Origin: Dryococelus australis
Taxonomy: Eukaryota > Arthropoda > Insecta > Phasmatodea > Phasmatidae
Assembly: GCA_029891345.1 (NCBI GenBank)
Contig: CM056995.1
Span: 211,557,047 to 211,621,046 of the forward strand
Reading direction: 5' to 3'
DNA: 64,000 bases
Under the pieces are notes generated by a model. That model saw only the letters and a program-made list of their open reading frames with translations, did no database searches and was not told where the DNA came from. Positions 26,701 through 54,727 of the stretch are shown in pieces. How positions within the stretch are numbered: position 1 is the stretch's first letter; each line of letters opens with the position of its first letter. The position numbers and the translations under genes were made by a program.

Positions 26701-26884
26701 TTTCAGTTAGGTGAATGGGGATGTGAGGTTGATAGACACGAATTCCAAAGTTTTAGTTAAACTAGAAATATGAAGTTTTTACTATAGGCTGACGGGCAAC
26801 TCAGTTGCCATTCAAACTCCGAGGAGTCTGAATGGAGAATGTGCTCTTCTTCAGTAATGAACAATATTCGTGACAGTTATTTGT

Positions 26885-27535: not shown

Positions 27536-27539
27536 CATG

Positions 27540-28450: not shown

Positions 28451-28454
28451 ATCA

Positions 28455-37372: not shown

Positions 37373-37378
37373 AACGTT

Positions 37379-38018
37379 AGTAGTATAAAATAAATGGTTC
37401 TGGCACAACAGGCTGCAGGCGGAGGACTGGAGGACTGCAATTAGCATATCAAGGCCCCGCCGAATTTCCCTTTTTCCCCTCTTTTTCCCGTCCAAAATGT
37501 CCGATTTCACGTACAAAAACTGCATTTTTCCCCCATTTTTCTCTCAACATTTTACGAGTTTCCCTCTCTTCATCAGAGGCCATCTTGGCAACCAGTGCCA
37601 GAAAGTGCATTTGCTCTATTTCACACATTGTGACCGAGGTTCGCTCCTTGTGGCTGATTCGGTCAGAGCTTCTCTCAAATTCGGAGATTCTCAAATTCCT
37701 ATCATTCCCGGCGGCCATCTTTGTATTGATGACCTATGTCTATCCAGGACAAATGGCGATCAGCTGAAGATGTCGACCATTTTGGCGGTCAGCGCCTCGT
37801 CGGCGGTGGGACATCAAGGCGTTACAAACGATCAATTTCGGATCTTGTGTAACACTGCCTCCCCCTGAAGTCTGTGTGTGTGCATAACACTTGTAAGCAT
37901 AGTTGGCTATAATTTCTGAACCTTTTCAGGTATAGTTGTCAAATTCTGAACATAGGCATTCACCCCGACCAGGAGAAGGGTCGCGGGGTCAAACGTGCCC
38001 CATGTCAACCAATCCAAA
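37379..38018 (+). repeat. Element A left terminal inverted repeat
   Basis: Matches 53187-53809 in inverse. Landmarks from outside in: GGACTGGAGGACTGC, TTTCCCTTTTTCCC, GGCGGCCATCTTTG, GACATCAAGGCGTTACAAACG, then the first unit of the 116-bp satellite. Similarity ends at about 38018, where an AT-rich insert begins. The 123-codon frame across it is non-coding in character. Confidence 0.95.
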
Positions 38019-39040
38019 TCTTACATTGGTTGGTTTAGTTTTATTTCCTAGCAACTCTGCAATAGAATATTTGGCTGAAGACATTTTGCTATCAGCTTAC
38101 ATTTAAGAGTACACAATTTTATATACACTTCAAAAACGCAGCAGAAGCGATATTGGTAACAATTGGTAAAATTAGTTAAAAATTTGGAAAATGAAAATGT
38201 ATCTGAAACTGGGTATCTGAAAGCATGGTGCAGTGCTTTTCGTACCTCTATTATGATAATTGTTCATATAATCACTAAAATGTTTCTTACATATGATTGA
38301 ATAATTGTCCTTGCCATTTTTATTAAAAGAAAATAATTTTATAGATTTACTCACATTACATATTTTTGTCGGATAATTATCATGTTGATTTTCATTTAGA
38401 ATATCTATTGCTGTATTGCGTAATTTACTATTTTTATGCTTTTTGAGAACTGTATTATAAACATATTTTCTACATTCGCACATTACTCTCTCTTTTTTTA
38501 ATTCATAACGACTACTAGCATATTCACTATAACATTTGTTACTGATGTTAAATAAAATGTGTAACTTTTGTGTGATAATGTGGTGAAAATCTTTCTATGT
38601 TTAATACTTTGCCACACTTATTCCATTGCTTGCATGTGTTATTATTTTCCATTTCGAGCATATTTTCCATTTTCTTTATTAAGAAAATTATTTTATAAAG
38701 AGAAAATATCTTCAAGTTTCTAGAAAATGAGAAATTTACTTAATTTTTGTATAATTTTGCATGTTTTTACCTTGTACCAAATCCTGTATGTTCATTTTTA
38801 ACGAATTTGAAAAATTTGCTTATTTTTGCATGATTTTGGCCTAAATTTGCATATTTTGGAGACTCGAAAATTGCTACTTCTAGAAACCTAGAACATTGCT
38901 TAATTTTGGCTTAAATTTTCTTGCTTTTGTCTTATATTTGCTTGCTTTTGGGTGAAAACTGCTTGATTTTTAAATAAAATAGAAGGGGTAGTGCAGGATT
39001 GGCATTATACATCTATTGCCAGGCAACCATCTTGGCTGTA
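38019..39040. mobile_element. AT-rich insert in the left end of element A
   Basis: The satellite-bearing terminal repeat breaks off at about 38018, and a further satellite unit resumes at about 39041, so the ~1.0 kb between is probably inserted DNA. It is strongly AT-rich, with imperfect TTTTTGCATRATTTTGG-like repeats at 38.7-38.95 kb. No clear ends or target duplication were found, so the boundaries are approximate. Confidence 0.5.
38172..38680 (-). pseudogene. Small cysteine-rich (zinc-ribbon-like) gene, broken
   Basis: The minus-strand frame at 38172-38483 continues upstream without a stop to about 38555. A second in-frame piece lies beyond a stop, and the total is about 160 residues. Visible features are an N-terminal TCKQW/KCGK pair, then VMCECRKYVYNTVLKKHKNS and ICKKHFSDYMNN. 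The CEC-x-K-x-V...LKKHK pattern resembles small Cys-rich proteins common in large DNA viruses and Polinton-like elements; that resemblance is my judgement, not a search. Base composition is distinct from the rest of element A. Function unknown. Confidence 0.35.
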
Positions 39041-39180
39041 AAATGCTTATCATTATCGTCCCCAGCGATGAGAGGGGTCGCAGGAGCAAGTATACCATTT
39101 TTCGACTTATAGGCATAGTTTGCTGTAAGTTCCGAACTACTTGAGATATAGTTGTCAAATGCATAACACAGGCATCACCT
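39041..39180 (-). repeat. 116-bp satellite, single inverted unit in left arm
   Basis: On the minus strand it carries TAGTTCGGAACTTACAG-like and GTTATGCATTTGACAACT words. It is the left-arm counterpart of the right-arm array at 52150-53310. Confidence 0.75.
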
Positions 39181-39491
39181 AGGTTCTTTCCTTACTAGCA
39201 TGCTACTTCTAAAGTCGCCCTAGGCAAACACCATCTTGCAGCCCCACTGAATCCCAAACATACACGGATCTTCAATGTGTGTACGTACTTCCAGACTGTT
39301 GGTCAGTACCACCGTCCGTGCACTCGTCAGCCGTGTACCGAAACGTCGATGCATGTATGTATATATCTAATGAGATGTCACTCGCAATGAATACACAGTC
39401 ATCGCTATGCAGCCGAGTCCCCACACTTACAACAACACATGCTAGAATGATATGCTTCCTATTACGAAACGAATTATCCCCTACCTTAACT

Positions 39492-39685
39492 GGTGTAGCA
39501 GTGAATACTCGTAGGCCATGAGTGCATCTCGTCGTCGTCGTCGTCGTCGTCGATGTGACTTCGCTTGAAGCGGAGACCACATTGACCGGTCCTGCCTTTC
39601 AGTTCATGTTATATAGCGACCACGTACTACATCCCCACCACCTCCCCCTTGTCATTGTACTTATCGGTATACTATTGAAAGGACA
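39492..39685 (+). repeat. ~190-bp direct repeat upstream of the zinc-finger genes, copy 1
   Basis: Shares with 39918-40095 the ordered words GCAGTGAATA, GCGGAGACCACA, GTCCYGCCT, CACCACCWYCYCCCYTTG and CTTATCGRTATACTATTGAAAGGA-like ends. Copy 1 also contains a (CGT)n run at 39528-39552. This is probably a duplicated 5' regulatory or leader region. Confidence 0.8.
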
Positions 39686-39689
39686 CAAT

Positions 39690-39745
39690 GCATGTGCCCT
39701 GTACCAACCTCGAGGTATCGCAGGTTCGATTCTCGTAGAGAGTGG
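39690..39745 (+). tRNA. tRNA-derived relic with B box
   Basis: GGTATCGCAGGTTCGATTC contains a canonical pol III B box. The upstream part aligns loosely with the tRNA-like sequence of element B at 28455-28530. Arms are poorly paired, so it is not called functional. Confidence 0.25.
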
Positions 39746-39917
39746 TAATATAAGTCAGCATAAAAGCTGACATGTTGTCTACAACAGTGTTAGTAATTAC
39801 AGACAGTCAGTCCCCGACCTCTACTCACGTAGAAGCTCATCACACACACAGACACACACACACAACTCACACACTGCTAATACCATGCAGAAGAGAGGTT
39901 TATTTATACCCTGATTG

Positions 39918-40095
39918 TTGTTGCAGTGAATAACCATAGACCGCGAGCGCATCTTGTTGACGTGATCCTGCTGTAAGCGGAGACCACAATGATAGTCCCG
40001 CCTATCCGTGCACGGTAGATGCCGACCAAATACTGCATCACCACCACCATCTCCCCTTGACAACGTGCTTATCGATATACTATTGAAAGGAAGAA
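39918..40095 (+). repeat. ~190-bp direct repeat, copy 2
   Basis: Second copy of 39492-39685, placed immediately upstream of a TATA-like box and the first zinc-finger remnant. Confidence 0.8.
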
Positions 40096-40099
40096 GAGG

Positions 40100-40106
40100 T
40101 ATAAAT
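40100..40106 (+). promoter_or_regulatory. TATA-like box ahead of the zinc-finger genes
   Basis: TATAAAT directly after the duplicated 5' block and ~100 bases before the first zinc-finger remnant. Weak alone in AT-rich DNA, but the position is consistent with a promoter. Confidence 0.3.
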
Positions 40107-40202
40107 TGCTGCAACAACAGATATTCACACACACAGTCGTGAAACAGTGATTGAGGTGTGTGTGAAGTCAGCAGTGTGGAGTCAGTAGTGTGGAGACAGC
40201 AG

Positions 40203-40505
40203 CGTGGAGTCAGCGTTTGAACACACTGGTACGTGTAAAGGTAATGCACCTTTGCTTGGCACCAGGCAGCATGCATTGTCGCACGACAAGTCTAACCTTC
40301 CTGCTGATTTGACATGTAAACTAACATTTGTTCGTGCGCCCATAATATCATGTAGACCTGCATGGTGTTCCAAACCAGTGTGCGAAGAGTGAACTATGAG
40401 TGCCGCAGAGCAAGAACCAGACAGACTGTCAGGAGTTGTAAATATTAGACCTGCACCACTAACATGTGAAGTGAAAACCACAGATGCTACCCAGGAGCAA
40501 TACGA
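40203..40505 (+). pseudogene. Zinc-finger gene remnant, copy 1 of the 'TGTCKG' block
   Basis: The reading HTGTCKGNAPLLGT, then SNLPADLTC and FVRAPI, matches 43068-43345 (HTGTCKGTIPLLDT, SSLPADSSC, LLRAPI). The H-x3-C end of a finger is kept but its first Cys pair is lost upstream, so this is a truncated duplicate. It is preceded by a GTGTGGAGTCAGCA-type minisatellite (40160-40210), like its counterpart. Confidence 0.7.
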
Positions 40506-40589
40506 TAGTTTTAGTGTAGGGTTGGCCAGCTCAGTTGTCATCTAGACTTCGACAAGTGAACATTGGCTGTGGATAACGTGCTCTTATAC

Positions 40590-41303
40590 ACAGATGGAAC
40601 AGGAAAGTTTTTCATGTCGTTACTGTAAAAAGGTATTTTCTAACAAAAACATCTACAGACAGCATCAAGCTGGGTGTTATCAGAATGCAGGTTGTATTAT
40701 TTTCGGATGTAAAAATTGCAAGTCCCAATTATGTCGCCGAAGTAACTTGAAAAGATCATGCATTATGTAAGGGCCACGCTGCACCAGCATCCAAAAAAAA
40801 AAAATCTGAATGTTGATTGTTATCAGAATGCAGGTTATATTATGTTCGGATGTGAAAAGTGCTAATCTCAATTTTGTCGTCAAAGCGACTTGAAAAGACA
40901 TCTTGCATCGTGCAAGGGCCATGCTGCACTAACTGTCAAGCATCTTCTGAAGATATTACCAGTCCAATGTAAGGGTTCATCTGAGAACAGTTCTTTGACC
41001 TTGCCACGACACCCATGCAAGTATTGTAACAAGATTTTTACATATGCATACGACACAAGGAGACACGCACAAAGTTCATGTAAGAAGAGCACAATCCGTA
41101 TGTCATATCGATGCGATAAGTGTCGAAGAATGAATGTGCATGTTGACGTCTTGAAAAGACATTTGAAACTGTGTAAGTCACAATCAACAGTTCATATATA
41201 CATTGGAAACCTCGTAACAGAAAATATGCAGGGTCTGCTGATAATGAACAACCTCAAAGTTATTCTGCAGCTTCGAAGCCTAATGTTAATGTCGTCTTCC
41301 TGA
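40590..41303 (+). pseudogene. C2HC zinc-finger gene of element A, unit 1
   Basis: It begins MEQESFSCRYCKKVFS. Finger 1 is CRYC...HQAGC. Finger 2 (CKNCKSQLCRRSNLKRS) is damaged and followed by a stop. A 141-bp duplication (40675 onward, repeated at 40816 onward) gives a second finger pair with SDLKRHLASCKG. Two more fingers follow, CKYCNKIFTYAYDTRRH...C and CDKCRRMNVHVDVLKRHLKLC. Spacing is C-x2-C-x12-H-x3/4-C, so the last ligand is Cys rather than His. Stops at the duplication joint make the unit a pseudogene unless spliced. Likely a nucleic-acid-binding protein of the element. It shares a ~1,045-bp repeat with the next unit. Confidence 0.75.
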
Positions 41304-41533
41304 TAGACCCTACTGTTAGCAAATCATCTAGAGATGAGAACAAGTGGGTACTATGACCTTAACGAATAGGAACAACCTGATTTCCCTCACACCACTACTG
41401 CATAGTTTCATCTCTGACCAGCATAATGTAGGTATGAAGTACTGCAACGACACTGCACTGGAGACTTTACAAGTTACAAATAAAAAAATACTTGCTCTCA
41501 AAATGATTCTAATAGTACCCTCGTCAGGTTGCC

Positions 41534-42283
41534 ATGGCAATGTGGTATAAAACAGGTTTTATTAGTGCGGTCAGCTCAGTCACCGTTCAGACCTCGATGA
41601 GAGATTATCAGTTGTGGGTAATGTGTTTATATTCGATGATGGAACAGGAAAGTTATTTGTGGTGCTACTGTACGAATACCTTTTCTACAATAATCAGCTG
41701 CAGAAAACATGAAACCGGTTGTCATCAGAATCCAGAGCATACTATGTCCACATGTGAACAGTGTAAATCACAGTTTGTCCGATATGGCAACCTGAGACAG
41801 CATCCTGCAACCTGTAAGGTTCGCCCTGCACTGCCTGCCAGGCGTAGATTAGCAAATATACATGCGGGCTCATTTACAAATGTTGAGACTAGTTCAATGC
41901 ATCCACCAAGAGATCCATGCAACTATTATGACAAAACATTTATAAGTGCATACAATGCTAGGACACACGAAAATAGTACTTTAGTGAGGAACGCCATTCA
42001 TAGGACATATCAATGTGATAAGTGTCGAAGAAGGTATGTACATGATGCCGATTTACATAGTCATTTGAAACTATGTAAAGTACAGACAACTGATAAACAA
42101 CCACAATATTATTCACCACCTCCAAAGCTTAATGATAATGGATTTTTCCTGAAGCGATCTGGATTCATGGGACTTTTTAAAGATTTGGTTACACCGAATA
42201 TGTCAACTACACCAAACAATGTTTGCTCTTTCCTGACAAGTATGAGTCCTAATATACCAAACCAACTTATCGATGAGGTATAA
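41534..42283 (+). CDS. C2HC zinc-finger protein of element A, unit 2 (intact frame)
   Basis: The longest uninterrupted frame in the window (249 codons). The natural start is probably the later Met in MEQESYLWCYCTNTFS, aligning with unit 1. Fingers: CYCTNTFSTIISCRKHETGC, CEQCKSQFVRYGNLRQH...C, a decayed CNYYDKTF (second Cys replaced by Tyr) with H but no final Cys, and CDKCRRRYVHDADLHSHLKLC. A ~70-residue tail follows, ending LTSMSPNIPNQLIDEV. Three of four fingers keep C-x2-C-x12-H-x3-C. The role is inferred as DNA or RNA binding, perhaps tied to element replication. Its open frame among broken sisters suggests that it is recent or was under constraint. Confidence 0.65.
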   Translation: MAMWYKTGFISAVSSVTVQTSMRDYQLWVMCLYSMMEQESYLWCYCTNTFSTIISCRKHETGCHQNPEHTMSTCEQCKSQFVRYGNLRQHPATCKVRPALPARRRLANIHAGSFTNVETSSMHPPRDPCNYYDKTFISAYNARTHENSTLVRNAIHRTYQCDKCRRRYVHDADLHSHLKLCKVQTTDKQPQYYSPPPKLNDNGFFLKRSGFMGLFKDLVTPNMSTTPNNVCSFLTSMSPNIPNQLIDEV

Positions 42284-42689
42284 CAAAATTGACCTGTCAA
42301 ATATAATATGTGGCTGGACTATATCTATACAAAACCAGAACCTCGCGAAGATGAATATTGTACCAGAACCTTCAAGACTTTTGCTGTAGCTGTGTGCCAT
42401 TGATCTGCAGCAGAACTTGCGATTGTCGATATCATACACAAGATATGTCAAGAGGAAGAAGAAATGGTGGCCAAGGGTTCAGGTTGGACCCTGGCTTCAG
42501 TAAATACTCTAGAGTTGATAACTAGTGGGTACTGCCTACTGCACACGTATACACATACTGATCTCCCCTCACTATGGAGAAGATGACAACATAGCTTCAT
42601 CAACTGTTAGAAGGAGAGGTACAAAATACTTCATCAATAGACATCCACATACAGTTGCTAAACTGTTTTGTACGACATCGGTGCTGTAA

Positions 42690-42826
42690 AGAGTCATCCA
42701 TGAGGAGTCAGCATTAAGGAGTCAGCATTAAGGAGTTAGCATCAAGGAGTCATCTCTGAGGAGTCAGCATCAAGGAGTCATATGTGAGGAGTCAGCATCA
42801 AGTAGTCATCCATGAGGAGTCAGCAC
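42690..42826 (+). repeat. 15-bp minisatellite (GAGTCAGCATCAAG-like)
   Basis: About nine head-to-tail copies of a 15-16 bp unit containing GGAGTCAGCAT or GGAGTCATCC. A related shorter array (GTGTGGAGTCAGCA) precedes the copy-1 block at 40160-40210, so the array and the coding block were duplicated together. Confidence 0.9.
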
Positions 42827-43194
42827 TACATAGCAGTACGTGTTTGTGTTCGCACATATGTTTGAAGAGGATGCACTCGAGTATGCCTATGTGTAAAACT
42901 TCCTACAGCAATCAACAATTACGTGGTAAACAATGTAGTTACTGTGACAAGTTGTTCAGTAAAAGTTGCAATGCTTGCCGCCATGAACAGAGCGACTGTA
43001 CAAAGGCACCAACCTCTAGAATACAAATATGTGATATATATGGTGCAGCATTCGGTAGAGGTGATAATATTAAGAGACATACTGGTACATGTAAAGGTAC
43101 CATACCTTTGCTTGACACTGGAAGGCACGATAAATCCAGTCTTCCTGCCGATTCGTCATGTATATTAATGTTACTTCGAGCACCCATATCATAA
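42784..43194 (+). CDS. C2HC zinc-finger protein of element A, unit 3
   Basis: An open frame whose natural start may be a Met after the minisatellite. It contains CSYCDKLFSKSCNACRHEQSDC (C-x2-C-x12-H-x4-C) and a second finger with Cys-to-Tyr loss (CDIYGAAFGRGDNIKRHTGTC), then KGTIPLLDTGRHDKSSLPAD. Its finger words closely resemble the remnants in element B (NCNAR...HESGC). It is probably the N-terminal part of the gene whose C-terminus is at 43322-43880, separated by stops and a frameshift. Confidence 0.6.
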   Translation: MRSQHQVVIHEESALHSSTCLCSHICLKRMHSSMPMCKTSYSNQQLRGKQCSYCDKLFSKSCNACRHEQSDCTKAPTSRIQICDIYGAAFGRGDNIKRHTGTCKGTIPLLDTGRHDKSSLPADSSCILMLLRAPIS

Positions 43195-43321
43195 ACGTGC
43201 ATGGTCCTCCAAACCAATGTGGTAAGAAGCAACCACGAGTAGTGCAGAGCATAGGGCATACAGATCGTCAGAAGTTGTGAACAACACTCCTGCACAGCTA
43301 TCATGTAAAGCAAAAAACGAA

Positions 43322-43880
43322 GATTCTACCCAGGATGTTGAGAACGACAATGTGACCTCCAAGTCCACTGAGGACGTTAATGGGACCTCCAAGTCAGCTG
43401 AGAACGACACTGTGTCTTCCAAGTGAGAAAGATGATGTGACCTCCAAGTCTGCTCATGATGATGTGACAACATATGCAAAGTGAAAGCGTGGTGCTGAGA
43501 CATACTCAACATGGAGGAAGAACATATATGTTGTCATGTATAATGTGACCCTCAAGTCTGCTGCAAACGGTAATATATCTTCAACATCTACTGAGATCGA
43601 CCATTTGACCTCTAAGTCTATTGGTGATGATATGCCTACATCTGCAAAGCGAAACCATGTTGCTGAGACCTACTCAACTCGGAAAAAGTACATATATTTA
43701 GATATGTATCGTAAACCTTGTGCGAAGAGTGACGTGGAACCTGGCTACTCGAAAGACCCGAATGCCCTAATTGATAGACTACAATGGTTGATTTCATTGC
43801 AGAGAGGTGGGTATCTGTCTGTCATCAGAGAGATAAATTCGATTATCGATGGACTCAGAGATGGAGGCTTTATTGAATGA
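43322..43880 (+). pseudogene. Repeat linker and conserved C-terminal domain of the zinc-finger protein
   Basis: A degenerate ~15-residue repeat (VTSKSTED, GTSKSAEND, VSSK, VTSKSAHDD, LTSKSIGDD) is interrupted by stops near 43425-43480. From 43536 the frame is open for 114 codons and ends at TGA 43878-43880. The last 45 residues, containing NALIDRLQWLISLQRGG and REINSIIDGLRDGGFIE, look like a compact helical domain. I have an impression of similar C-termini on Polinton-associated proteins but cannot confirm it. A polyadenylation signal follows 39 bases later, so this is the 3' end of a transcript. Confidence 0.6.
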
Positions 43881-43918
43881 TATATGTATATGTGTGTGTG
43901 CCATTTGGTTATGTATGT

Positions 43919-43924
43919 AATAAA
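43919..43924 (+). terminator. Polyadenylation signal AATAAA
   Basis: AATAAA 39 bases after the stop of the zinc-finger/linker gene, an ideal position for its mRNA 3' end. Confidence 0.6.
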
Positions 43925-43949
43925 TATAAACATCAACAGTAAATTTGAT

Positions 43950-44460
43950 TTCTTTTTGTTTTAATTCCTACCATGTAAGAAATGTACCTACCATTGTGTG
44001 TTTGCTGGTGTCTTGCTGCGTGCACTTCCTGATGATGATCAACACTTGGTGTGTGTGTGTGTTTATATACAGGTTACCACATCAGGAAACCACAGTGGAC
44101 TGTCTTGTATGCTGGGTTGAAAATGTAATGTCAAATTTACCCCAAGCATAATGTATTTTCCACACAGATACCATTTGCTTACAGCGAGCCTTCAGAGACC
44201 CTTGTTATCGCTGATGATGTTATAGATGGTAAGTCGTTGGTTATGTTGCAGTAGAGTACCCAATCACAGTAGTACCACCGATACCATAGTAACCCATCCT
44301 ACCAATATTCACATATTGCACAAGCGACGAGCACTACATATCACATCAGTCATTGGCTCAAGTCTGCCAGAGCACTTTTGACTGCATATATACACTTATT
44401 TTATGCACATGAAAGCCTTATCTAACATGGGTAATACACCAACAAGGATGCAGGAAAATA
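43950..44460. other. Element A interior, unassigned
   Basis: Non-coding. Contains at 44310-44355 the landmark ACATATTGCACAAGC with CATATCACATCAG, shared with element B. Confidence 0.5.
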
Positions 44461-44463
44461 TTT

Positions 44464-44548
44464 GTCAAGTGTAGGATTCGAACCTATGCTCCCCACACAG
44501 GGATAAGGAGCTTAAATTCATCACCTTAGACCTCTCGGCCAGCCTGAC
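44464..44548 (-). tRNA. tRNA-Leu(UAA)-like sequence
   Basis: 85 bases, the usual length of a tRNA-Leu with a long variable arm. On the minus strand the acceptor start GTCAGGC faces ACTTGAC (six of seven positions pair, counting G-U). The A box is GGCCGAGAGGTCTAAGG and the B box AGGTTCGAATCCT. The anticodon loop TTTAAGC reads TAA (Leu). The anticodon stem and one T-stem pair are imperfect, so it may be a pseudogene or the head of a SINE. It lies inside element A. Confidence 0.5.
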
Positions 44549-44559
44549 AATCTGTATTA

Positions 44560-45055
44560 GTAAGGAAATTACAAGGCTTATTGAATGTTATACTATATGT
44601 GCAATGTGGTTACTTTCTAATTTGAGAGATGGTTATGTTGAATATGATACAATAGATGATGTACTTACCTTTATGTTGGAGGGGGCTGACATCGTCGGAA
44701 CAGAAGCGATTGCTATTCATTACCCTTCATTACTTGCATTAAAGTCCTGGTATTTATCGAACCACGAGTGCATGCTCAGCGGTTGGGGTTGACGGTTGGG
44801 CAGACAGGGGGGAGGTATGGCTAGAAAGGCTCGGTTCTTGGGTAAAGTATGAAACTGAGTATAATTACGGACATGGACGTCTGTAGGCTCAGTACACTAG
44901 TGTGCAGAGACTGTAGCTACATGCAATGATTGTTCGGTGTGCATGCTCGGTACACAAGTGTGGATAGGTCATGAAGACAGAGTATGACTGCCTGTAAGTA
45001 AGTAAGTGTTGGTTGGTGTATAACCACTGTTAATTGGAGACTCGGTACATGCAAG
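44560..45055. other. Element A interior, unassigned
   Basis: An open frame of 62 codons (44604-44792) has no recognisable family. The polymerase fragment begins in frame only at about 45060; the rest of the ~1,000-residue polymerase is absent upstream. Confidence 0.5.
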
Positions 45056-45059
45056 TACA

Positions 45060-45407
45060 TCGGGCAAGGTCATCGGCAAGTTTAAGGATGAGTGTGGAAG
45101 GGGGGATGTCATGATGGAGCTCGTCGGTCTGAGGGCCAAATTGTACACATATGTGTGCAGGGACAAGGTCGTGAAGCCGGCCAAAGGGGTTCAGAGGAGC
45201 ATCATCCATCGAGTCATCACCATTGAGGACTACAGGCACGTTCTTCTGGACCTCCAACTCATGAGGGTGCAGGTCCACAGCATTAGGTATCACCTCCACA
45301 AGGTTTACTCCGAATGTAGCAATAAACTCGCACTGTCGTGGATGGACGACAAGTGTCGGATCATGAACGACGGCATACATACCATCCCCTATGGCTACAT
45401 TGGGTAA
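45060..45407 (+). pseudogene. Polinton-type family B DNA polymerase, C-terminal fragment
   Basis: About 115 residues in one frame ending at TAA 45405-45407. The order of motifs is that of the extreme C-terminus of Maverick/Polinton protein-primed polymerases: GKVIGKFKDECG, then ELVGLRAKLYTYV, KPAKGVQRSIIHRVITIEDY, LALSWMDDKCRIMNDG and IHTIPYGY. In the family this part lies after the polymerase motifs and contacts the primer terminus. The exonuclease and polymerase active-site motifs are missing, so the gene is reduced to its tail. This is the strongest protein evidence that the element is a Polinton. Confidence 0.85.
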
Positions 45408-45629
45408 ATCATGGTGCACACATACCTGTGCAAGCACGTATAATCATCTATGTGTCTGCCCTCGGGAGGGCAACAGGGTCGGGATGTATAATAGGAGGCA
45501 GTGCCTCACCCCAAGATCGTCGAAGCTGAAGCACCTCTGATACCCTCTCCTGCAACGACTTACCTGTGTGTGCGTGTGGATTTGCCCCGGCATACTGGCC
45601 AGAACTTCCTGCTCTGTCAATTCGGTCTC

Positions 45630-46525
45630 CCATCTTGGAAGTCACACTGTCTAGCAAAACTGTGGCTGGTGATGTGCGGCTATGTTGGCGACCAGTGCAC
45701 CGACAATGTCTATTTGCAAAATGTCGGTGGGTGGCAGGTGGCCATGGCAGCAGCCAGTACACCAACAAATGACATTTTCTATTGTAAGGATGAAGTCTGA
45801 ATGGGACATCTCGGAAGTCGCACTGTCTAACAAAATTGCGGCTGGTGGTGGTGGGCGACTATGGTGGTGGCCAGTGCGCCGGCGATGGTCATTGCACATA
45901 TGTCATGAAGACAGAGTATGACAGCCTGTAAGTTGGGGGTAGGCAGCCATGATATGGGCCAGTGAGCTGATGATGTCCATTTGCAAAATGTCGGACAGTG
46001 GCAGACGACCATGACAGCAGCCAGTACATCGACACTGACATTTCGTTGTAAGGATGAAGTCTGAATGCCAAATCTTGGATGTCGCATTGTCTAACAAAAT
46101 TACGACTGGTGGCAGGTGGCCATGTTGTTGGCCAGTGTACCGACGACGATCATTGGCGACCACCGGTGGTGGGCTGCCAGAAGTCTGAATGTGGGTGGAC
46201 ATGTTGGTAGCCAGTAGCCATATGCAAAATGGTAACTGCCATTGGTGGGTGGCCAGAAGGGTTGGTGGACATTTTGGCAGCCAGTACAATGACGACAGCC
46301 ATTCGCAAAACGGCAGGCACTGATGGCGCACAATGAGAATTCTGAATGCCACAAGCGGTCAGAAGGGCCGGCGGTCATATTGTCGGCCATTACAATGATG
46401 ACAGTTATTTGCACAATGGTATCACGGTCGATGGTAACTGCCGGTGGCGGGGGCCAGAAGTGTGAATGTGGGCAGCAGCTGGTGGCAGGCGGTCAACAGG
46501 GCCGGGGTGGTGGGCGGCAAAAATT
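45630..46525 (+). repeat. Degenerate minisatellite block (GGCCATGTTGG type)
   Basis: Irregular tandem copies of CACTGTCTARCAAAAYTG, GCTGGTGGTGGTGGGCG-like, TTGGYGACCAGTGYACCGAC-like and CATTTGCAAAATGTCGG words. Anchors lie near 45633, 45810 and 46073. Frames that cross it in all directions are repeat artefacts. Confidence 0.8.
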
Positions 46526-46718
46526 CTGAATACCACCATTGACCTTAACCTTGAACATGACATGTGCCCACCATTTCTAACTTAGAAAATTTTACCGCTT
46601 AAAAGAAAAAATCATAATATTTAGAAATTTTTTAAATTGTAAGTCAATGGCGGCAGCTTCGTTGTAGACGATTCCGAAGTCGGGGGCTTGCCCTCAGCCA
46701 TGGGGGCTGAAGTCCAAC

Positions 46719-46985
46719 ATGGTATACAGAAATTTAAATACATAACATTAGATTTATAAAAGACATGCAATTAGGGTTAAATTAATTCCTCCCCTCTTTA
46801 CCTCTCGATGTGATCCCTTTACCATGAACGAAAGGAGTAATTATGTTTATGTTTGTTAAGTTGGTGGATCAAATGTTTAAGTTGGTCAACATGTTTGCAC
46901 TTGTGTGTGTGAGTTGCATGTAACAGGATGTTGTAATCAGCTGTGATAGTGCTTTGTGCTTGGTTGTAACCAGAAGTTGTTTATC
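46719..46985 (+). repeat. ~260-bp direct repeat flanking the hAT region, copy 1
   Basis: Shares with 51497-51750 the ordered words CATGGTATACAGAAAT, CTTTACCTCTCGATGTG, AGTTGGTGGATCAAATG and TTGGTTGTAACCAGAAG. The hAT element inserted immediately after copy 1. Confidence 0.9.
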
Positions 46986-47566
46986 GCCCAAAAGCAGGCC
47001 CGACCCTAGGGCAGGGCGAGTGGGCCCGTCGCCCCGTGCGCCGAGATGAAGGGGGCGCCAAAATCAGACGAGCAAGTAATTTTTCCCCCCTCAAGCATGG
47101 TGGAAATTTGCCACGCACAAAGGTATTTAAACACATGTATTGCTGGTAATGTTGGCAGTCCAAGGTTGGTATAAAAAGGGCACAAAATCTAGAAGACTTT
47201 ACGAATGTGATGTAGTTGTAAATACCGTGTGGCACTCTGTTGATGAAATTGATTAATGGGTGAGCTACTGAAGATATGAGGCTTACCGCATAGTGTGCTC
47301 TGAGCCCTGTAGTTCAAACTATGTGATGTAGTTACAGTTTGGAAACATGCAACATTCTCATCGAGTGTGCTTTGTTTTGAGAGTTTGTCTGCATTCTGAG
47401 AATAGTCTGTGATTAACCGTATTTACAGATGGCTATTGTGACCTTAGACAATATAATTTTGTGATTGTTGATCTTAACTAAGAATGGGATTTTATTTCTT
47501 GTTATCTAATCCGGTAGGTTACTAAATAAATACTTCCCTTTTTTGTGTATGTACATAAGTTTTGTT

Positions 47567-47765
47567 TATAGCCTATGCTATTCATGGTAGAGTGAGCCCT
47601 TTTTGAGACCCTGCTAAGATTTTCTTTTCACCCAATTTTTGTCCTTCTGCAACTTTTTAATACAAAAAGTGCTGTCCAAGTTGTTATTAGCAGTTTAATA
47701 AACACTATTTTATCATTCTACTGATCTCAAAAGTTAACTTCTGAGGCCACCATAAAATATATGTA
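47567..47765 (+). mobile_element. Truncated small MITE inside the hAT element
   Basis: It begins TATAGCCTATGCTATTCATGG and GAGTGAGCCC, like the MITE ends. An inner part matches the interior of the 33201-33442 MITE in reverse (AGTTAACTT and ATAAAATATAT words). The second terminus is missing. Confidence 0.55.
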
Positions 47766-48599
47766 TTTGTTATGTATATGAGAATGATATAGGCCTATGG
47801 CCGTGCAGATGATATTATCACTGCACCTACTAATTATGTACCGAAATAATCGCATAGTTGTGGGGTCATTACAAGAGAAACCAACATAAATTATTATCGA
47901 TTACAGATATCCCAGTTAATAACATTTTTACTACTTATACCGATCATGCTAAAAAATATTTTTTATAGGCATGTTGCTTTAAAAATTCTCAAATATTAAC
48001 AAAAATGTTCAAATTTTTAATTTTTTTTTGCTGGTTCCCCTCATAAAGCATTGTAATATTTTCTAAATATGTCTTAAAACAAACTTCATCAATGATTTAT
48101 ATGCTTTGCACATTGCATTGTAATTCATTTATCAATAGTTAGAGACCGTACCATCTCGAGTTATAAAAGAACAATCTCTTTATACTTCACAATCCTGTGC
48201 ATCCTAGAGTGCTACAGTAGAGGTCGTTCATTAATTGGTTGTTGCCACATTTGGACCTCACCATCCTGTTCGACTGATTGTCTCAGGAGTTAGGTCAGCC
48301 GAGGGCTACCTTTTCCTGTTGGTGTATAGATCTTAGAGGCATGTCGGAGTAGTGAATGTCATGTGACGTACGTGATAACAGTATAAAGTTTAATGATGTG
48401 TAGCTCGCTTCTGAATTATTTCGAGATATTATAGGGACTTAATAATAATATTTTTTCCTATTATTATGCATATAAAATTGTTTTTATTTCTAGGCAAGTA
48501 ATGCCATACACATGAAGAAATTCGGTCAGAAGTAGTTGTCTATCTGGACGTTGTTGGTGTAGTTAAAAATAAATGAACATTTTTTTGGGATTTCGAAAA

Positions 48600-49942
48600 G
48601 CCGAAAATGGAGTAAGATTAGAAGACTGCCGTGGCCAGGGATACGACAATGGTGCCAAAATTAGAGGTAAAAGTAAAAGTGTTCAAGCGAAAATTCTTCA
48701 AATGAATAAGAGTATAATTTATACATTGTGGATATTATTCTTTTAATTTAGCGGTTTTGCATGCAGTTTCATCATCGACTATTTCAATTACACTGTTTGG
48801 TGTTCTGCAGAAAATATATGTGTTGTTATCAGCTTCTGTTCAACATTGGGAAATTTTGAAGAACCACGTGGCCAGTCTCACTGTGAAACAAATAAGTGCT
48901 ACTCGCTGGGAAAGTAGAATTGATAGCATCAAGGCTATTAGATATATAGTTGAAGAATGTGTATGATGCTTTAATTGCAGTGTTGGAACCTAGTTTGGCA
49001 GATGCTGGTTTTGAAGTATGTAGCACACTCTTTAGTGGACCAGTTAATGAAATTTGAATTTTTTTAGTTATAATATGATATTTTTGTTATCAAGTTAACA
49101 CCGTGAGCAAATAAATGCAAAGCCCAGTGATGGATATTTATAATGTCACCACTTTATTAAAGAGATGTAGGTCTTTAGAGCATGTATCTTCCTACAGAAA
49201 AATGCAGTTATAACTGCAAAAGAGCTAGCAGATACATTAGGAGGTGATGCTTCGTTTGGAGAACTCACTCATTCACGAAGAAAGAGGAGGCAGTTCGAAT
49301 ATGATGGTTTTGACGAGTCAGCAAATGATAGTCCAGAAGAACAGTCTAAACGGAATTTTTTCTATCTCACATTTTATGCTGCACAAACATAATTGAAACA
49401 ACGGTTTGAGCAACTCCAAGAACACAAAAATGTTTTGGTATTATGGCTTGTGCCAATCCCCAAAACATCTAGACAATGCTCAAGTGGCTGATAATGCTTT
49501 ATTGGACATGTGTATGGTAATGCAAACAGCTCCAAGAAACACCAATGGAAGTCATTAGGATATTAATGGCTTGAAGATTTGTGAAGGATTAAAACACTTA
49601 CTGTGTTTTGTACCACCATTTCTGAAGAGTTCCCCTAAGGAAGTTTTACAATATATAGAATAAGAAAAAGCACGAGTACTACATTTCCTAATATCTGGGT
49701 GTCGCTTCTAGTAATGCTGAATTTTCACAGTGACAGTAGCTAGCTGAAAACACAGTTTTTTGAAGTTAAAATTGATCAAAACTTATCTTCGATCTATGAG
49801 TGGCGAACGGCTCTCATTGTTGGTGATATTGTCCATAGAGAATGATATAGCTCGCAAGATTGACGTTTCTTCATCTATAACCAAATTTGCGCAGGCCAAG
49901 GCAAGAAAAGTCCTATTTTATAGAGCAATGAAGTGTACATAA
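48600..49942 (+). pseudogene. hAT-family transposase (ZMYM1-like), broken
   Basis: Pieces in order: GQGYDNGAKIRGKSKSVQ and ILQMNKS; then FGVLQKIYVLLSASVQHWE, ILKNHVASLTVK and SATRWESRIDSIKAIRY, matching the DUF4371-type hAT domain; a linker with TAKELADTLGGDASFGE and CFVPPFLKSSP; and a C-terminal LKLIKTYLRSMSGERLSLL, SIENDIARKIDVSS and AKARKV, the hAT dimerisation region. Several stops, frameshifts and a missing middle show that it is dead. The family cuts and pastes with 8-bp duplications. Confidence 0.9.
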
Positions 49943-50439
49943 ATGTGCAATTTGATTTGTATATAAAATTTATATATTAAATGGTAAATCTTAGTGAATC
50001 TCTTCTTTAATAATGTTACAGTGATAGCAAGAAAGTTACGTGTCTTATTTTCTCAGGACTGAAGAAAAAAATTAATGAACTCTTCCTATTATGAGTTAAT
50101 TTTTCCATTGCAGGAGTTGTATGCATAAGAATTATTATGGAGACTTAGTTCCGTATTAACAAAGTTTGGTGACAGAGACTAGATAAACGGCGAATCAGAC
50201 GAGGATGTGACAATAAATATAACACATTATAGTGATTACATAAATGTGAAAGTCATTTTGTGTATCAACATTACATCTTAAATGCTAATGACATGTAAAA
50301 TTTATTTGTCAATTTGTTAAACGAAATTGCATTTGTAATCTAAGAATTTAAATTTTAATTGATAAAAATGCTGGGGCATATTAAAAGCCCCTTGCCCCGG
50401 GTGCTGAATGATCTAAGGCTGGCCCTGCCCGAAGTGGCG

Positions 50440-50725
50440 CCTTGGTGGGGCCCAGAAGTACATCCGGTGATAAGGAACCCAGCACGGAGCGGCAGCGTTA
50501 AAGATACTGTTCAATGCCGTGGTGTTGGCACTTGTATGTTAAATGCCGAGCGAGTAGGTTGAAGTAGTAGGTCCAGGCTGAACCTGGACTTTTCTGCTTT
50601 CAGTTTTTTTGTGTTATTACTTGGTTTTGAGGTATGTGTCTGTGTTGTATTAATAGTTAAAATCTTTTTTGCATATTATATTAATTTTTACGATTTTTAA
50701 CATTATTGATTCTGTCTTTTTGAAA
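50440..50725. other. Element A interior between hAT and the next gene trace
   Basis: No gene recognised. Confidence 0.5.
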
Positions 50726-50729
50726 AGAT

Positions 50730-51229
50730 TTCATCTTATCATGTATCAGAGATGCATTCATTCTTATGGTTATTACCCGAGGAAGGTTTATTATAATACT
50801 GTGTCTTTTACTAAGTATGTCAATAAAGATGATAGGTACTGGACAGCTAAGATCCTTGATATTGAAGAGAATTATATTTTGTTTTTTTTTTTTGTACCAT
50901 TTTGGTCTTGAAGGAATAGCCTCTAAAGCTGGTAGTGGTTTGTTGGAAATGTGTTTCTTCAGGAGCTCTCATGTTGAGAAGAAGCCTGCACCAAAGGAGA
51001 TTAGTGAGATTGTTACAAACATGATAATCTGTTGGAAGACTTTTCCATTCATGAGGGCAAAGCAGACAACACTGCTGTAATTAGTGTTTTTGGAAATGTG
51101 TCTATGTATTCCCATAAGAAGATGAAGATGGAACTTGGTGATCAGATTTGGTTGTATCGGAAATTTGTTGATACTACTGGTGATATGCATATTCTTTGTC
51201 ATGTGAAATTGTTTTCAAGTTGTGATTAA
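50730..51229 (+). pseudogene. Unknown element-A gene, frameshifted
   Basis: Three consecutive frames read as one protein broken by two shifts. The first holds KYVNKDDRYWTAKILDIEEN, the second GIASKAGSGLLEM and EKKPAPKEISEIV, the third LEDFSIHEGKADNTAVISV, MELGDQIWLYRKF and GDMHILCHVKLF, with stop at 51227-51229. AATAAA follows six bases later. A fragment with related N- and C-terminal words occurs at 55990-56281. I do not recognise the family. The D-rich YWTAKI motif recalls Tudor/BAH-like small beta domains, but this is only an impression. Confidence 0.45.
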
Positions 51230-51234
51230 CTGTA

Positions 51235-51240
51235 AATAAA
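51235..51240 (+). terminator. Polyadenylation signal AATAAA
   Basis: AATAAA six bases after the stop of the unknown element-A gene. Confidence 0.4.
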
Positions 51241-51310
51241 TGTTTTGTAAGTACGAAATGTACTGCACATTTTTTTTGTATTTGTTATATTCCTTTCCTT
51301 TACATTATAA

Positions 51311-51326
51311 GGGGGGGGGGGGGGGG
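51311..51326. repeat. 16-base G homopolymer
   Basis: Uninterrupted G run; a potential quadruplex and a likely sequencing-error site. Confidence 0.9.
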
Positions 51327-51496
51327 TTGTATTGAGGGGGAAATATTCGAAAATTTATTTTATGCTATTAAATATACAGAGTGGTATAAATATATGTCAA
51401 GGACATCACACAAAATACTAAAAAAGTACACCCTTCAAAAATCCTATTATTAAAATTAATAGAGACATTTATGGAGCTTCCTTAGGGAAATGCCAA

Positions 51497-51750
51497 CATG
51501 GTATACAGAAATATAAATAAATAACATTAGATTCATAAAAGACATGCAAGAAGCTTTAAATTCATTCGCCCTCTTTACCTCTCGATGTGGTCCCTTTACC
51601 ATGCCCAAAAGGAGTAATTATATTTATTAAGTTGGTGGATCAAATGTTTATGTTGGCCAACATGTTTGCACTTGTGTGTTGCATGTAACATGATGTTGTT
51701 ATCAGTTGCAATAGTGCATTGTGCTTGGTTGTAACCAGAAGTTGTTTATT
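51497..51750 (+). repeat. ~260-bp direct repeat, copy 2
   Basis: Second copy of 46719-46985 on the other side of the hAT element and the unknown gene. Confidence 0.9.
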
Positions 51751-52149
51751 GTTGCAATCGAATGCTGAGGACATTGGTGAGTGGGTAGAATTTTGGTAGT
51801 TAGTCACAACATGGATGGCAGCGACATGGTGTGTGAGTAGAATTTGTATTTATAATGTCTAACAGACTGCTGGGATGTAGACATAGGTCGTAATTGATCA
51901 CATGTGTGTGGTAATACTAAGCATGAGGGTCGGGAAGGGAATGTGCTCTCTATTACACAAGTGCTTGGGAGGTCAGCACCCAGCGAGTCACTGGCACTTG
52001 GCCAGGGAAAGTGCACAAGGATGTATGGTCAGGGGTGATGTAGGTAGGTGGAGGTGGAGGACGGGATACAAAGAGTGCGAGGATGAGTGGAAGGTCGCTG
52101 GTCAAGTCACCAAGGGATTTTGGTAGTTGTATCTCAAATGCTTCGTAAA

Positions 52150-53310
52150 TTAAAACCATCTATCATAGTTGGGGGTTGTTTATGTTATGAATTTTGCGAC
52201 TATAACTCAAAAGGTTCGAAAAGTACAGCCAACTGTGTTTATAAGTTGGAATAGGGCTTACTTGTCCCTGCGACCCCTCTTCTGGTCTTGGCAGATATAT
52301 GTTATTAATTTGACAACTATAACTCAAATGGTTCGGAAATTACACCCAACTATGCTTATACACTGACATAGGGCATACTTGACCCCACAACACCTCTCCT
52401 AGTTGTAGACGATGTCTATGTTATGAATTTGTCAACTATAACTCAAATGGTTCGGAAATTACATCCATCTATGCTTATATACTGATATATGGCATACCTG
52501 ACCATGCGACCTTTCTCCTAATCATGGATGATGTCTATGTTATGAATTTGACAACTATAACAAACTGTTCGGAAATTACAGCCATATGTTCTTTTAAGTT
52601 AACATAGGGCATACTTGACCCTGCGACTCTTCTCCTAGTCGTTGGTGACGACTATGATATGAATTTGGCAACTATAACTTAAATGGTTCGAAAATTACAT
52701 CCACCTATGCTTATATGCTGACATATGCCATACTTGACCCTGCGACTCTTCTCCTAGTCGTGGATGATGTCTATGTTATGAATTGGACAACTATAACTTT
52801 AACATTTCGGAAATTACAGTCAACTATTCTTATAAGTTGACATAGGGCATACTTAAGCCTGTGGCCCTTCTCCTAGTCATGGTTGATGACTATGATATGA
52901 ATTTGGCAACTATAACTTAAATGGTTCGGAAATTACAGCAACCTATGCTTATAAGTTGGCATGGGGCGTGTTTGACCCCGACCCTTCTACTCGGGGTGGA
53001 TGCCTATGTTATGAATTTGACGTTTATAACTTAAGTCGTTCGGAAATTATAGACAACTATGCTTATAAGTTGACATCGGGCATACTTGAGCCCGCAGCCC
53101 TTCTACTAGTCATGGTTGATGCCTATGTTATGAATTTGACAACTATAACTTAAATGGCTCGGAAATTACAGCAAACTATGCTTATAAGTTGACATGGAGC
53201 AGATTTTTACCTTGCGACCCTTCTCCTAGTCGGGGCGGATGCCTATGTTCAGAATTTGACAACTATACCTGAAAAGGTTCAGAAATTATAGCCAACTATG
53301 CTTACAAGTG
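52150..53310 (+). repeat. 116-bp satellite, about ten units, right subterminal array
   Basis: Units share ATGTTATGAATTTGACAACT, TAACTTAAATGGTTCGG, AAATTACAGCCAAC, TATGCTTATAAGTTGACAT and CCCTTCTCCTAGTCG. Anchors recur about every 112-120 bp (52180, 52293, 52410, 52529, 52650, 52766, 52885, 53000, 53116, 53239). The last unit runs into the terminal inverted repeat. Confidence 0.95.
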
Positions 53311-53809
53311 TTATGCACACACACAGACTTCAGGGGGAGGCAGTGTTACACAAGATCCGAAATTGATCGTTTGTAACGCCTTGATGTCCCACCGCCGACG
53401 AGGCGCTGACTGCCAAAATGGTCGACATCTTCAGCTGATCGCCATTTGTCCTGGATAGACATAGGTCATCGATACAAAGATGGCCGCCGGGAATGATAGG
53501 AATTTGAGAATCTCTGAATTTGAGAGAAGCTCCGACAGAATCAGCCACAAGGAGCGAACCTCGGTCACAATGTACGAAATTAAGCAAATGCACTTTCTGG
53601 CACTGGCTGCCAATATGGCCGCCGACGGCGGGAGGGAAATTCGAAAAAAATTGAGGGAAAAAGTGCCGTTTTTGTACGTGAAATCGGACATTTTGAACGG
53701 GAAAAAGAGGGAAAAAAGGGAAATTCGGTGGGACATTGATATGCTAATTGCAGTCCTCCAGTCCTCACCCTGCAGCCTAGTATAGCAGAACAATATATTT
53801 TATACTACT
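53187..53809 (-). repeat. Element A right terminal inverted repeat
   Basis: Inverse of 37379-38018 with few differences. It carries AAAGATGGCCGCCGGG and CAATATGGCCGCC and ends in CT at 53809, followed by GACGTT. Confidence 0.95.
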
Positions 53810-54007
53810 GACGTTTCTGGTGGGAGATTGTGTAAAAACGAGCGTGTAAGGTGCCCCTTGATGGTTATCGGCAGGTGGTGGTGGGCATTCATATAAACTT
53901 TTAGACAAATAATTTCTATATTTTTTTTTGCGTATAAATTGGCGATTTCCTGTTGGCACTCTCTGTGTATGAAAATAATTGAGTATTAGTTATACAGGAT
54001 AATTATA

Positions 54008-54439
54008 ATGTCTCTATCCATTTGTGGGAAATCGGTAATATATCTTGTTTGTTACGATGCAGTGAGAGCTGGTTTCACACGAAGATTTAAGAAACCTGAC
54101 CCTATAAATGTTACCATTCGCCATATTGTCAACAAATCCAATCACACAGGAGTGTTAAGGACGAAGAGCGTTCAGACAGGTCATCTGTACCTGCAGACAC
54201 CTCTGCAACGGATTCAGGATGCCATTGAAATAAGCCCTTGTACATCGACTCTGTGTCTTATTCGTAAGCTTAAAGTTTCACAATCCACTGTGTGGAAGCT
54301 ATTAAAGGCTGTTCACGATGAAGTGAGCACTTTTGAAATCAACCCTAGAAAAAAGTCACTGCTCCTACCTGTATACATTTTAATGGTTGCACTTCGTGAC
54401 ATTCGCTCAGTCATGTTAGTAGCGATGAAGGGGAAATAA
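54008..54439 (+). pseudogene. Mariner transposase DNA-binding domain fused to MITE sequence
   Basis: A 143-codon open frame. Residues 20-100 are the double helix-turn-helix head of a DUF4817-type transposase: AGFTRRFKKPDPINVTI, then LQTPLQRIQDAIEISPC, LCLIRKLKVS and QSTVWKLLK. At WKLLKA it passes without a stop into MITE D and ends with KKSLLLPVYILMVALRDI and a stop. It lacks any catalytic domain. Whether it is expressed is unknown; if so it could bind transposon ends without cutting. Confidence 0.65.
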
Positions 54440-54726
54440 GTTTTATATATTAACGTGGAATAAAACGTTGTTGGGTAACCACTTGTGATAACTTATATTA
54501 TTTCTGCCCCTTTCTGTTTTTTCAGTGCATTGAATTGAAAAAGGAAGCAGATTAGTAAAATATTTACTTTTCTAAAAATTTCAGTCTCATCTTACCGACG
54601 CATGAATAAAGTGCTGAGGTCCATGACAATGTTAATTTAAATAAGGCGGCAAAATACACAATGTACATACGAGTAGATCATAATTAGGGCTTTTAAAATT
54701 GCTCAGTTTACAGTAAACCGACTATA
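54303..54726 (+). mobile_element. MITE copy D
   Basis: Starts TAAAGGCTGTTCACGATG and ends ACAGTAAACCGACTATA. Same family and orientation as copy A. It sits near the centre of the palindromic mariner element. Confidence 0.9.
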
Positions 54727-54727
54727 G

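What the first reader, a model, noticed from the sequence alone, without database searches (positions are those of the whole stretch)
37379..53809. A 16.4-kb Polinton with intact ends and a near-perfect 6-bp target duplication
Seen: AG...CT termini, ~0.62-0.64 kb inverted repeats, AACGTT/GACGTT flanks and a Polinton-type polymerase C-terminus inside. Known: Polintons are 15-20 kb with 6-bp duplications. Inference: the element moved as a unit but has lost integrase, ATPase, protease and capsid genes, so it may have been mobilised in trans or decayed later.
Basis: partly seen in the sequence, partly recalled or inferred. Interest (0 to 1): 0.75.

Follow-up and report, generated by a model that had tools for sequence, protein, structure and literature searches.

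The report
Gutted Polinton, probably moved by relatives
This is an old, gene-poor copy of a virus-like jumping element (a Polinton) in which no working enzyme was found and which was most likely copied and inserted by gene-bearing relatives that still share its outermost 80 base pairs.

Summary
In detail: terminal inverted repeats (TIRs) of ~0.62 kb (37379-38009, 53188-53809; 90.8% identical), (AGT)2...(ACT)2 ends and a 5-of-6 target duplication. Over 12 elements of the genome the flanking 6-mers match at 55 of 72 bases; 0 of 100,000 permutations reach that. The polymerase piece is real: homologues lie just downstream of Pfam DNA_pol_B_2 matches. But the gutting predates this insertion: its polymerase breakpoint (~45062/45066) recurs at four other unlinked places, and its TIR recurs on elements of 2.4-15 kb in which tblastn found no integrase. 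One element sharing only the outer ~80 bp of the TIR (94%/90%) encodes integrase, double-jelly-roll capsid and phospholipase-like proteins. Best reading: a non-autonomous Polinton lineage mobilised in trans. At four of 12 elements or loci compared, inverted duplication goes well beyond the TIRs. About 5 kb of the 16.4 kb is probably a nested foreign repeat. New variant of a known kind. Trans-mobilisation is inferred, not shown; the ATPase was not searched for in the genome and the protease search was uninformative.

The parts
37373..37378 (.). left copy of the 6-bp target duplication, AACGTT
   Evidence: read directly; 5/6 match to the right copy; family-wide test
37379..38009 (+). left TIR; begins AGTAGT (the (AGT)2 end motif); the outer ~80 bp are shared with an integrase- and capsid-coding element
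   Evidence: end motif as reported for vertebrate Mavericks in PMC8097293 (passages)
39055..39179 (-). single inverted unit related to the 119-bp subterminal repeats
   Evidence: (I4, I5)
40546..42280 (+). broken C2H2 zinc-finger array; pieces at 40546-40767, 40866-41300 and 41516-42280 lie in three different frames; taken as the N-terminal part of the polymerase protein (inference)
   Evidence: weak zinc-finger matches, all below the curated cut-offs; the 41516-42280 query has 13632 candidates, 149 scored, 153 matches; dN/dS values of the zinc-finger pieces scatter too widely for a claim
42158..42583 (+). N-terminal module of the Polinton-type polymerase (KGSGWTL motif), broken
   Evidence: tblastn from the DNA_pol_B_2 locus L069: 42158-42478, E=3.7e-15; the 42404-42583 frame matches L069, E=7e-6, upstream of its polymerase; no Pfam match of its own
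42760..43191 (+). frame with a further zinc-finger-like unit (by eye), overlapping an internal duplication (40221-40496 resembles 43077-43335)
   Evidence: self comparison; no Pfam match
44350..45062 (+). module of the non-autonomous family; at 12 or more other places the match stops at its right edge (45047-45061)
45066..45598 (+). 3' end of the polymerase gene (open frame 45024-45404); its left edge is the shared breakpoint
   Evidence: 25 of 30 polymerase loci begin to match at 45065-45081, 16 of these 25 stop at 45598-45608; Pfam DNA_pol_B_2 just upstream in four other copies
46713..51749 (.). stretch bounded by two direct copies of a ~270-bp repeat (46714-46984, 51493-51749, 86.7% identical); at least 48600-49600 is a separate dispersed repeat, so the stretch is probably a nested insertion; edges not fixed
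51758..52106 (-). inner part of the right arm; in some other copies its reverse complement lies in the left arm
   Evidence: e.g. L039, L043, L054
52177..53309 (+). about 9.6 copies of a 119-bp subterminal tandem repeat that runs into the TIR
53188..53809 (-). right TIR; ends ACTACT
53810..53815 (.). right copy of the target duplication, GACGTT

Best explanation
A non-autonomous Polinton. Its interior is a patchwork of the two ends of a polymerase gene, family-specific modules and subterminal tandem repeats; what it keeps acts in cis: the (AGT)2 end motif, where protein-primed copying would start, and an outer ~80-bp block. Gene-bearing Polintons of the same genome keep the same ~80 bp (one shown with integrase and capsid, others beside integrase or polymerase matches), and their enzymes most likely copied and inserted the non-autonomous elements in trans, each insertion leaving a 6-bp duplication. 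Afterwards this copy decayed, received at least one nested repeat, and the inner halves of its TIRs were probably made alike by gene conversion. Shown: ends, duplications, shared termini, a coding partner, the shared breakpoint. Inferred: trans action, protein-primed copying, gene conversion.
For: TIR copies bound elements of 2.4, 2.45, 3.8, 5.7, 6.2, 12.6, about 14 and 15.1 kb; those with a credible duplication have different ones, hence independent insertions. In none of the pieces held of these elements did tblastn find the integrase, capsid or phospholipase proteins of the coding element. Element C11:83832117-83843026 matches the window TIR only over its outer ~80 bp (94% left, 90% right) and encodes DJR capsid (PF21738, E=2.4e-39), phospholipase A2-like (2.2e-9) and rve integrase (1.6e-6, below the curated cut-off). 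Of 40 C11-type termini, 14 (from 12 elements, C11 included) have an integrase match within 20 kb on the inner side and 0 on the outer side; of 40 window-type termini 3 do, two of them the C11 element itself and one C1:377645466. Integrase and polymerase matches within 20 kb: 27 same-strand and 7 opposite-strand pairs. Shared breakpoint: 25 of 30 polymerase loci start to match at window 45065-45081, while the window and three other places match through it; a genome search finds it at five places including the window. dN/dS of the polymerase C-terminus is 0.20-0.28 against six and 0.45 against a seventh locus with the full-polymerase junction, and 0.36-0.77 against copies at two core-less places (only the first 14 matches were printed).
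Against: No movement in trans was observed. In the coding element C11 no polymerase was found (no palm, no DNA match to the C-terminus), its frames are broken up and its TIRs are only 85% alike, so no presently active helper is shown. Sharing of the outer 80 bp could be common descent without function. The genome searches score only the best candidates, the integrase query came from C11 itself, and the 40 + 40 termini are the best matches only, so the association is sampled, not counted. Two of the 12 elements show no credible duplication. Host flanks at the four other breakpoint places were not checked. The adenain-type protease was found nowhere, but the controls were silent too.
Confidence: 0.76

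Rival explanations
1. A once autonomous Polinton that inserted with all its genes and lost integrase, capsid, ATPase, protease and polymerase core in place.
For: Polymerase pieces remain in gene order; the span lies within the size range of intact vertebrate Mavericks (12.7-24.6 kb, PMC8097293, passage); the frames are broken.
Against: The same core-less junction occurs at five unlinked places; the TIR beyond 80 bp is unrelated to that of the coding element C11; about 5 kb of the length is probably foreign.
Confidence: 0.12
2. A helper-dependent, defective-interfering-like form: inverted duplications arose during protein-primed replication of a Polinton virus and are spread, perhaps packaged, by gene-bearing relatives.
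For: Inverted repeats reach well beyond the TIRs in four of 12 elements or loci compared (C6b 81%, C4 52%, C1:161M 41%, C1a 37% of the length), against 7% in the coding element; at three of the five places with the breakpoint the junction is present twice in opposite orientation; the (AGT)2 end motif is retained.
Against: Inverted arms also arise by conversion or recombination between inverted copies, as described for Galileo, in a paper that cites expansion of Polinton inverted repeats as already reported (PMC3573991, passages). In C6b the inner arms are 95.6% alike and the outer TIR 74%, which points to later duplication. The window itself is only 12% inverted repeat; C13 20%, C9 10%, C14 5%, C6:51.88M 0%; the 54% of the two short elements C6a and C7 is mostly their TIRs.
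Confidence: 0.2
3. A compound repeat: two TIR copies inserted separately in opposite orientation, with unrelated repeats between them.
For: A nested foreign repeat is present; 119-bp-type repeats also occur elsewhere in the window.
Against: Perfect inverted terminal 14-mers, a 5/6 duplication outside both, and stretches of shared internal order with other TIR-bearing copies.
Confidence: 0.04

Closest known systems
Polinton/Maverick elements (polintoviruses), e.g. the vertebrate Mavericks of PMC8097293 (passages seen)
   Same: 6-bp target duplications, TIRs of the same size class (46-1447 bp there; ~0.62 kb here), (AGT)2//(ACT)2 ends, pieces of a Polinton-type polymerase, and a relative with integrase and DJR capsid in the same genome.
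   Different: No integrase or capsid found in this element; polymerase core missing; interior mostly family-specific modules; host probably not a vertebrate (inferred).
Tlr elements of Tetrahymena
   Same: Were once suggested to be a non-autonomous derivative of Polintons (passage of PMC4028283).
   Different: That paper disputes it and finds a capsid gene in Tlr, so it is not the same situation.
MITE-like and deletion-derivative non-autonomous DNA transposons (general kind)
   Same: Share terminal sequence with a gene-bearing element of the same genome; several size classes.
   Different: Far larger (to about 15 kb) and tied to a self-synthesizing virus-like element rather than a cut-and-paste transposon.
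Galileo/Foldback elements (PMC3573991, passages seen)
   Same: Long TIRs with internal tandem repeats, and recruitment of internal sequence into inverted arms.
   Different: Different superfamily and enzymes; the resemblance is in structure only.
Defective adenovirus genomes with duplicated left ends (recalled; one search gave no source for it)
   Same: Inverted duplication that keeps a terminal origin at both ends.
   Different: Those are episomal; here the forms are chromosomal and old; no evidence of packaging.

Membership tests
Polinton/Maverick | 6-bp target duplication | tested here: met
   5/6 here; 12-element permutation test, 0 of 100,000
Polinton/Maverick | TIRs of several hundred bp, with AGT-type end motif | tested here: met
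   ~0.62 kb, 90.8%; AGTAGT at both ends, and at 12 of the 17 termini aligned
[quoted passage not shown]
   N- and C-terminal pieces present, core absent; identity by linkage to DNA_pol_B_2 in other copies; no direct Pfam, PHROGs or PDB match
Polinton/Maverick | rve-type integrase | tested here: not met
   no tblastn match of the C11 integrase in the window at E<=1e-3; 30 open frames of the element scanned against Pfam, none rve (88 frames of 60 aa or more exist)
Polinton/Maverick | DJR capsid protein | tested here: not met
   no tblastn match of the C11 capsid pieces in the window; none in the 30 frames scanned
Polinton/Maverick | adenain-type protease and packaging ATPase | tested here: inconclusive
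   protease: no match in the genome and none in the controls; ATPase not searched for in the genome; neither appears in the 30 frames scanned
Non-autonomous Polinton (derivative) | termini shared with a gene-bearing element in the same genome | tested here: met
   outer ~80 bp, 94%/90% with C11; C1:377645466 with an integrase match 1.6 kb inside
Non-autonomous Polinton (derivative) | several independent insertions of the same gutted structure | tested here: inconclusive
   shared junction at five unlinked places, and different duplications at other TIR-bounded copies; flanks of the four other junction places were not checked
Non-autonomous Polinton (derivative) | mobilised by the partner's enzymes | not testable with these tools
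   needs a bench test; step referred

The most novel reading that the evidence does not exclude
A large invertebrate genome carries a helper-dependent satellite system of a Polinton virus: inverted-duplication, defective-interfering-like Polintons that keep only the terminal origin and integrase site, were replicated by the protein-primed polymerase, and were perhaps packaged by capsid-coding Polintons.
Probability: 0.2. Interest if true: 0.8.

Novelty: new variant of a known kind. Interest (0 to 1): 0.55.

Why it matters
Polintons are regarded as close to the root of many eukaryotic DNA viruses (PMC6431247 and PMC8097293, passages). The authors of PMC8097293 call the hundreds of defective Maverick copies in axolotl and tuatara perplexing, with the process unclear (passage). 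A lineage that shares only the outer 80 bp with gene-bearing partners offers a concrete answer, amplification in trans, and points to the sequence the integrase should recognise. No paper of the held library holds the phrases nonautonomous or non-autonomous Polinton or Maverick, though Tlr was once proposed to be such a derivative (PMC4028283, passage) and expansion of Polinton inverted repeats is cited as reported (PMC3573991, passage). Repbase and subscription journals were not searchable, so such elements may well be catalogued there.

Tried and rejected
Direct identification of the polymerase piece by Pfam, PHROGs and PDB, singly and as a profile, gave nothing useful; linkage inside the genome settled it instead. 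Two viral-contig scans with the polymerase piece and its alignment gave no relative; the tool warns that records near this genome may be left out. I first read the zinc-finger region as a separate regulator gene; the L069 comparison places the module that follows it in the polymerase protein, so I dropped that, though zinc fingers directly upstream of an intact polymerase were not seen. dN/dS against the core-less copies (0.36-0.77) overlaps the control frames (0.38-1.07), so no claim of a protected protein is made. A packaging or satellite reading is kept only as the novel case. I found no support for the 46.7-51.75 kb stretch being an LTR element or a hAT relic. The cross-match of zinc-finger hits used only 12 of the 153 matches and is not used. 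Rfam: no match in the window.
Full report
Observation. The two ends and the repeats are there as described. The left TIR begins AGTAGTATAAAATA at 37379 and the right one ends TATTTTATACTACT at 53809; they align over 632 columns at 90.8%. The flanking words AACGTT and GACGTT match at 5 of 6. For chance, I took 12 elements of the genome with both termini read: the left and right 6-mers match at 55 of 72 bases, against a mean of 1.48 of 6 for the 132 mismatched pairs, and 0 of 100,000 permutations reach that. Two of the 12 fail (0/6 and 3/6) and stay in the count; four further loci were left out because one terminus was not recognisable (C13:30.47M, C1:35.03M) or not fetched (C6:51.88M, C1:161.13M).

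Where it is. The window is part of a 3.415-Gb assembly of 646 contigs. A nuclear copy of COX1 holds 9 AGR codons in 447, which would be stops under the vertebrate mitochondrial code, so the host is probably an invertebrate animal. That is inference from one copy.

The polymerase piece. The frame 45024-45404 has no Pfam or PDB match of its own. Its homologues in the genome give 150 matches from 11,771 candidates, 150 scored. In 24 of the 30 loci held (the query locus L018 is one of them) a polymerase palm stretch, with the motif YMDTDSF or a degraded form of it, lies just upstream. At C12:20.50M, C3:185.67M, C4:16.30M and C5:210.27M, four of the 54 rows, a row lies about 270-385 bases downstream, same strand, of a Pfam DNA_pol_B_2 match (compared by eye). 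In the DNA_pol_B_2 locus L069, sequence upstream of the polymerase matches window 42158-42583 and sequence downstream matches 45048-45398. The window thus keeps an N-terminal and a C-terminal piece of a Polinton-type polymerase gene, with the catalytic core missing between them.

A shared breakpoint. In 25 of 30 polymerase loci the similarity to the window begins at 45065-45081, and in 16 of these 25 it stops at 45598-45608. In the window and at three other places (five of the 30 rows, two of which are the same place) it runs on through the breakpoint. A genome search with 44350-45404 finds the continuous form at five places in all: the window, C1:223.96M, C2:262.67M, C1:161.13M and C6:51.88M (40 of 1176 candidates scored). 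At 12 or more other places the match stops at window 45047-45061, so the module left of the breakpoint also exists without that polymerase piece. The gutted structure therefore most likely predates these insertions. I did not check host flanks at the four other places, so segmental duplication is not formally excluded for them.

Elements with the same TIR. Paired termini define elements of 2.4 to 15.1 kb; the outer left end of the C13 one was not recognised. Where the duplication is credible it differs from element to element, so these are independent insertions. Tblastn with the integrase, capsid and phospholipase proteins of the coding element finds none of these in them; the only other locus hit is L015, a polymerase locus that also carries capsid and phospholipase matches.

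Elements that could help. C11:83832117-83843026 shares with the window only the outer ~80 bp of the TIR (94% left, 90% right); beyond that no similarity of the TIRs was found. It is flanked by AGTGTA/ACTGTA. It encodes a double-jelly-roll capsid (two pieces, E=2.4e-39 and 1.5e-14), a phospholipase A2-like protein (2.2e-9) and an rve integrase (1.6e-6, under Pfam's cut-off). No polymerase was found in it. Its integrase gives 150 matches, 150 of 14,674 candidates scored. Among 40 C11-type termini (424 candidates), 14, from 12 elements, have an integrase within 20 kb inside and 0 outside; 6 have a polymerase C-terminus inside and 0 outside. Among 40 window-type termini, 3 have an integrase inside and 0 outside; 2 have a polymerase C-terminus inside, both being the window's own, and 1 outside. 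A further element, C1:377645466-377658730 (13.3 kb, TAGGAT/CAGGAT), is matched at its left end by the window query and at its right end by the C11 query and has an integrase match about 1.6 kb inside its left end.

How it most likely works. Vertebrate Mavericks end most often in (AGT)2, and the end motifs allow the jumping-back step of protein-primed replication (PMC8097293, passages). The window keeps that motif at both ends, as do 12 of the 17 termini aligned. With the outer block shared with gene-bearing elements, the simplest account is copying and insertion in trans. Shown: ends, duplications, a coding partner, the breakpoint. Inferred: the enzymes' action on these ends.

Inverted arms. 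Inverted repeats cover 81% of C6b, 54% of C6a, 54% of C7, 52% of C4, 41% of the C1:161M locus, 37% of C1a, 20% of C13, 12% of the window, 10% of C9, 7% of the coding C11, 5% of C14 and 0% of the C6:51.88M locus (the C1:161M and C6:51.88M loci were measured over fetched DNA, not over an element with both ends). In the two short elements C6a and C7 this is mostly the TIRs; well beyond the TIRs it is C6b, C4, C1:161M and C1a. At three of the five breakpoint places the junction is present twice in opposite orientation. Such forms recall defective adenovirus genomes (recalled, no source found) but are equally expected from recombination or conversion between inverted copies, as described for Galileo (PMC3573991, passages). 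In C6b the inner arms are 95.6% and the outer TIR 74% alike, and in the window the inner 300 TIR columns hold 6 differences against 35 in the outer 290 (Fisher p = 9.6e-7). Both favour later homogenisation.

Nested sequence. Window 48600-49600 matches a dispersed repeat at 39 other scored places at 77-90% (40 of 244 candidates scored); by eye none of them is at a TIR place. With the flanking direct repeats 46714-46984 and 51493-51749 this suggests that about 5 kb is foreign; its edges were not fixed.

Selection. Against six loci with the full-polymerase junction the C-terminus has dN/dS 0.20-0.28 (0.45 against a seventh), against two core-less places 0.36-0.77; control frames give 0.38-1.07 (first 14 matches per piece). 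The constraint is that of the coding polymerases; nothing shows that the piece in the window is in use.

Literature. Searches in the held library. No paper holds the phrases nonautonomous or non-autonomous Polinton or Maverick. Papers of which passages were seen: PMC4028283, PMC6431247, PMC2871265, PMC8097293, PMC8504770, PMC3573991; no paper was read whole. The founding Polinton paper is not held.

Verdict. A real Polinton-type insertion, correctly seen, that most likely belongs to a non-autonomous, trans-mobilised lineage; new variant of a known kind.

Noticed in passing
window 31802-32439 (-): A second, more broken polymerase remnant of the same type, matched by the L069 polymerase (33% over 127 aa, E=1.5e-10, and shorter pieces).
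   Followed up: no
window 21990-29490: 119-bp-type repeats at 28989-29490 and 23424-23614 and inverted arms (21990-22158 with 28390-28558, 23483-23606 with 29092-29215): perhaps an older, degraded member of the same family.
   Followed up: partly
window 720-1152, 2268-2699, 3713-4123, 54302-54729, 62469-62893: A ~430-bp repeat in five copies in both orientations, 75-78% alike; unidentified.
   Followed up: no
window 37379-38009 and 53188-53809: Inner halves of the two TIRs almost identical (6 differences in 300), outer halves not (35 in 290); looks like partial gene conversion.
   Followed up: partly
window 44001-52000: Positive GC skew, 0.115 to 0.231 per 2 kb, unexplained.
   Followed up: no
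G000, e.g. L065: 102 COX1 matches spread over the contigs, nearly all with TGA codons: many nuclear copies of mitochondrial DNA.
   Followed up: partly
L015: A polymerase C-terminus beside capsid and phospholipase matches: another element of the coding type, without a palm match upstream.
   Followed up: no
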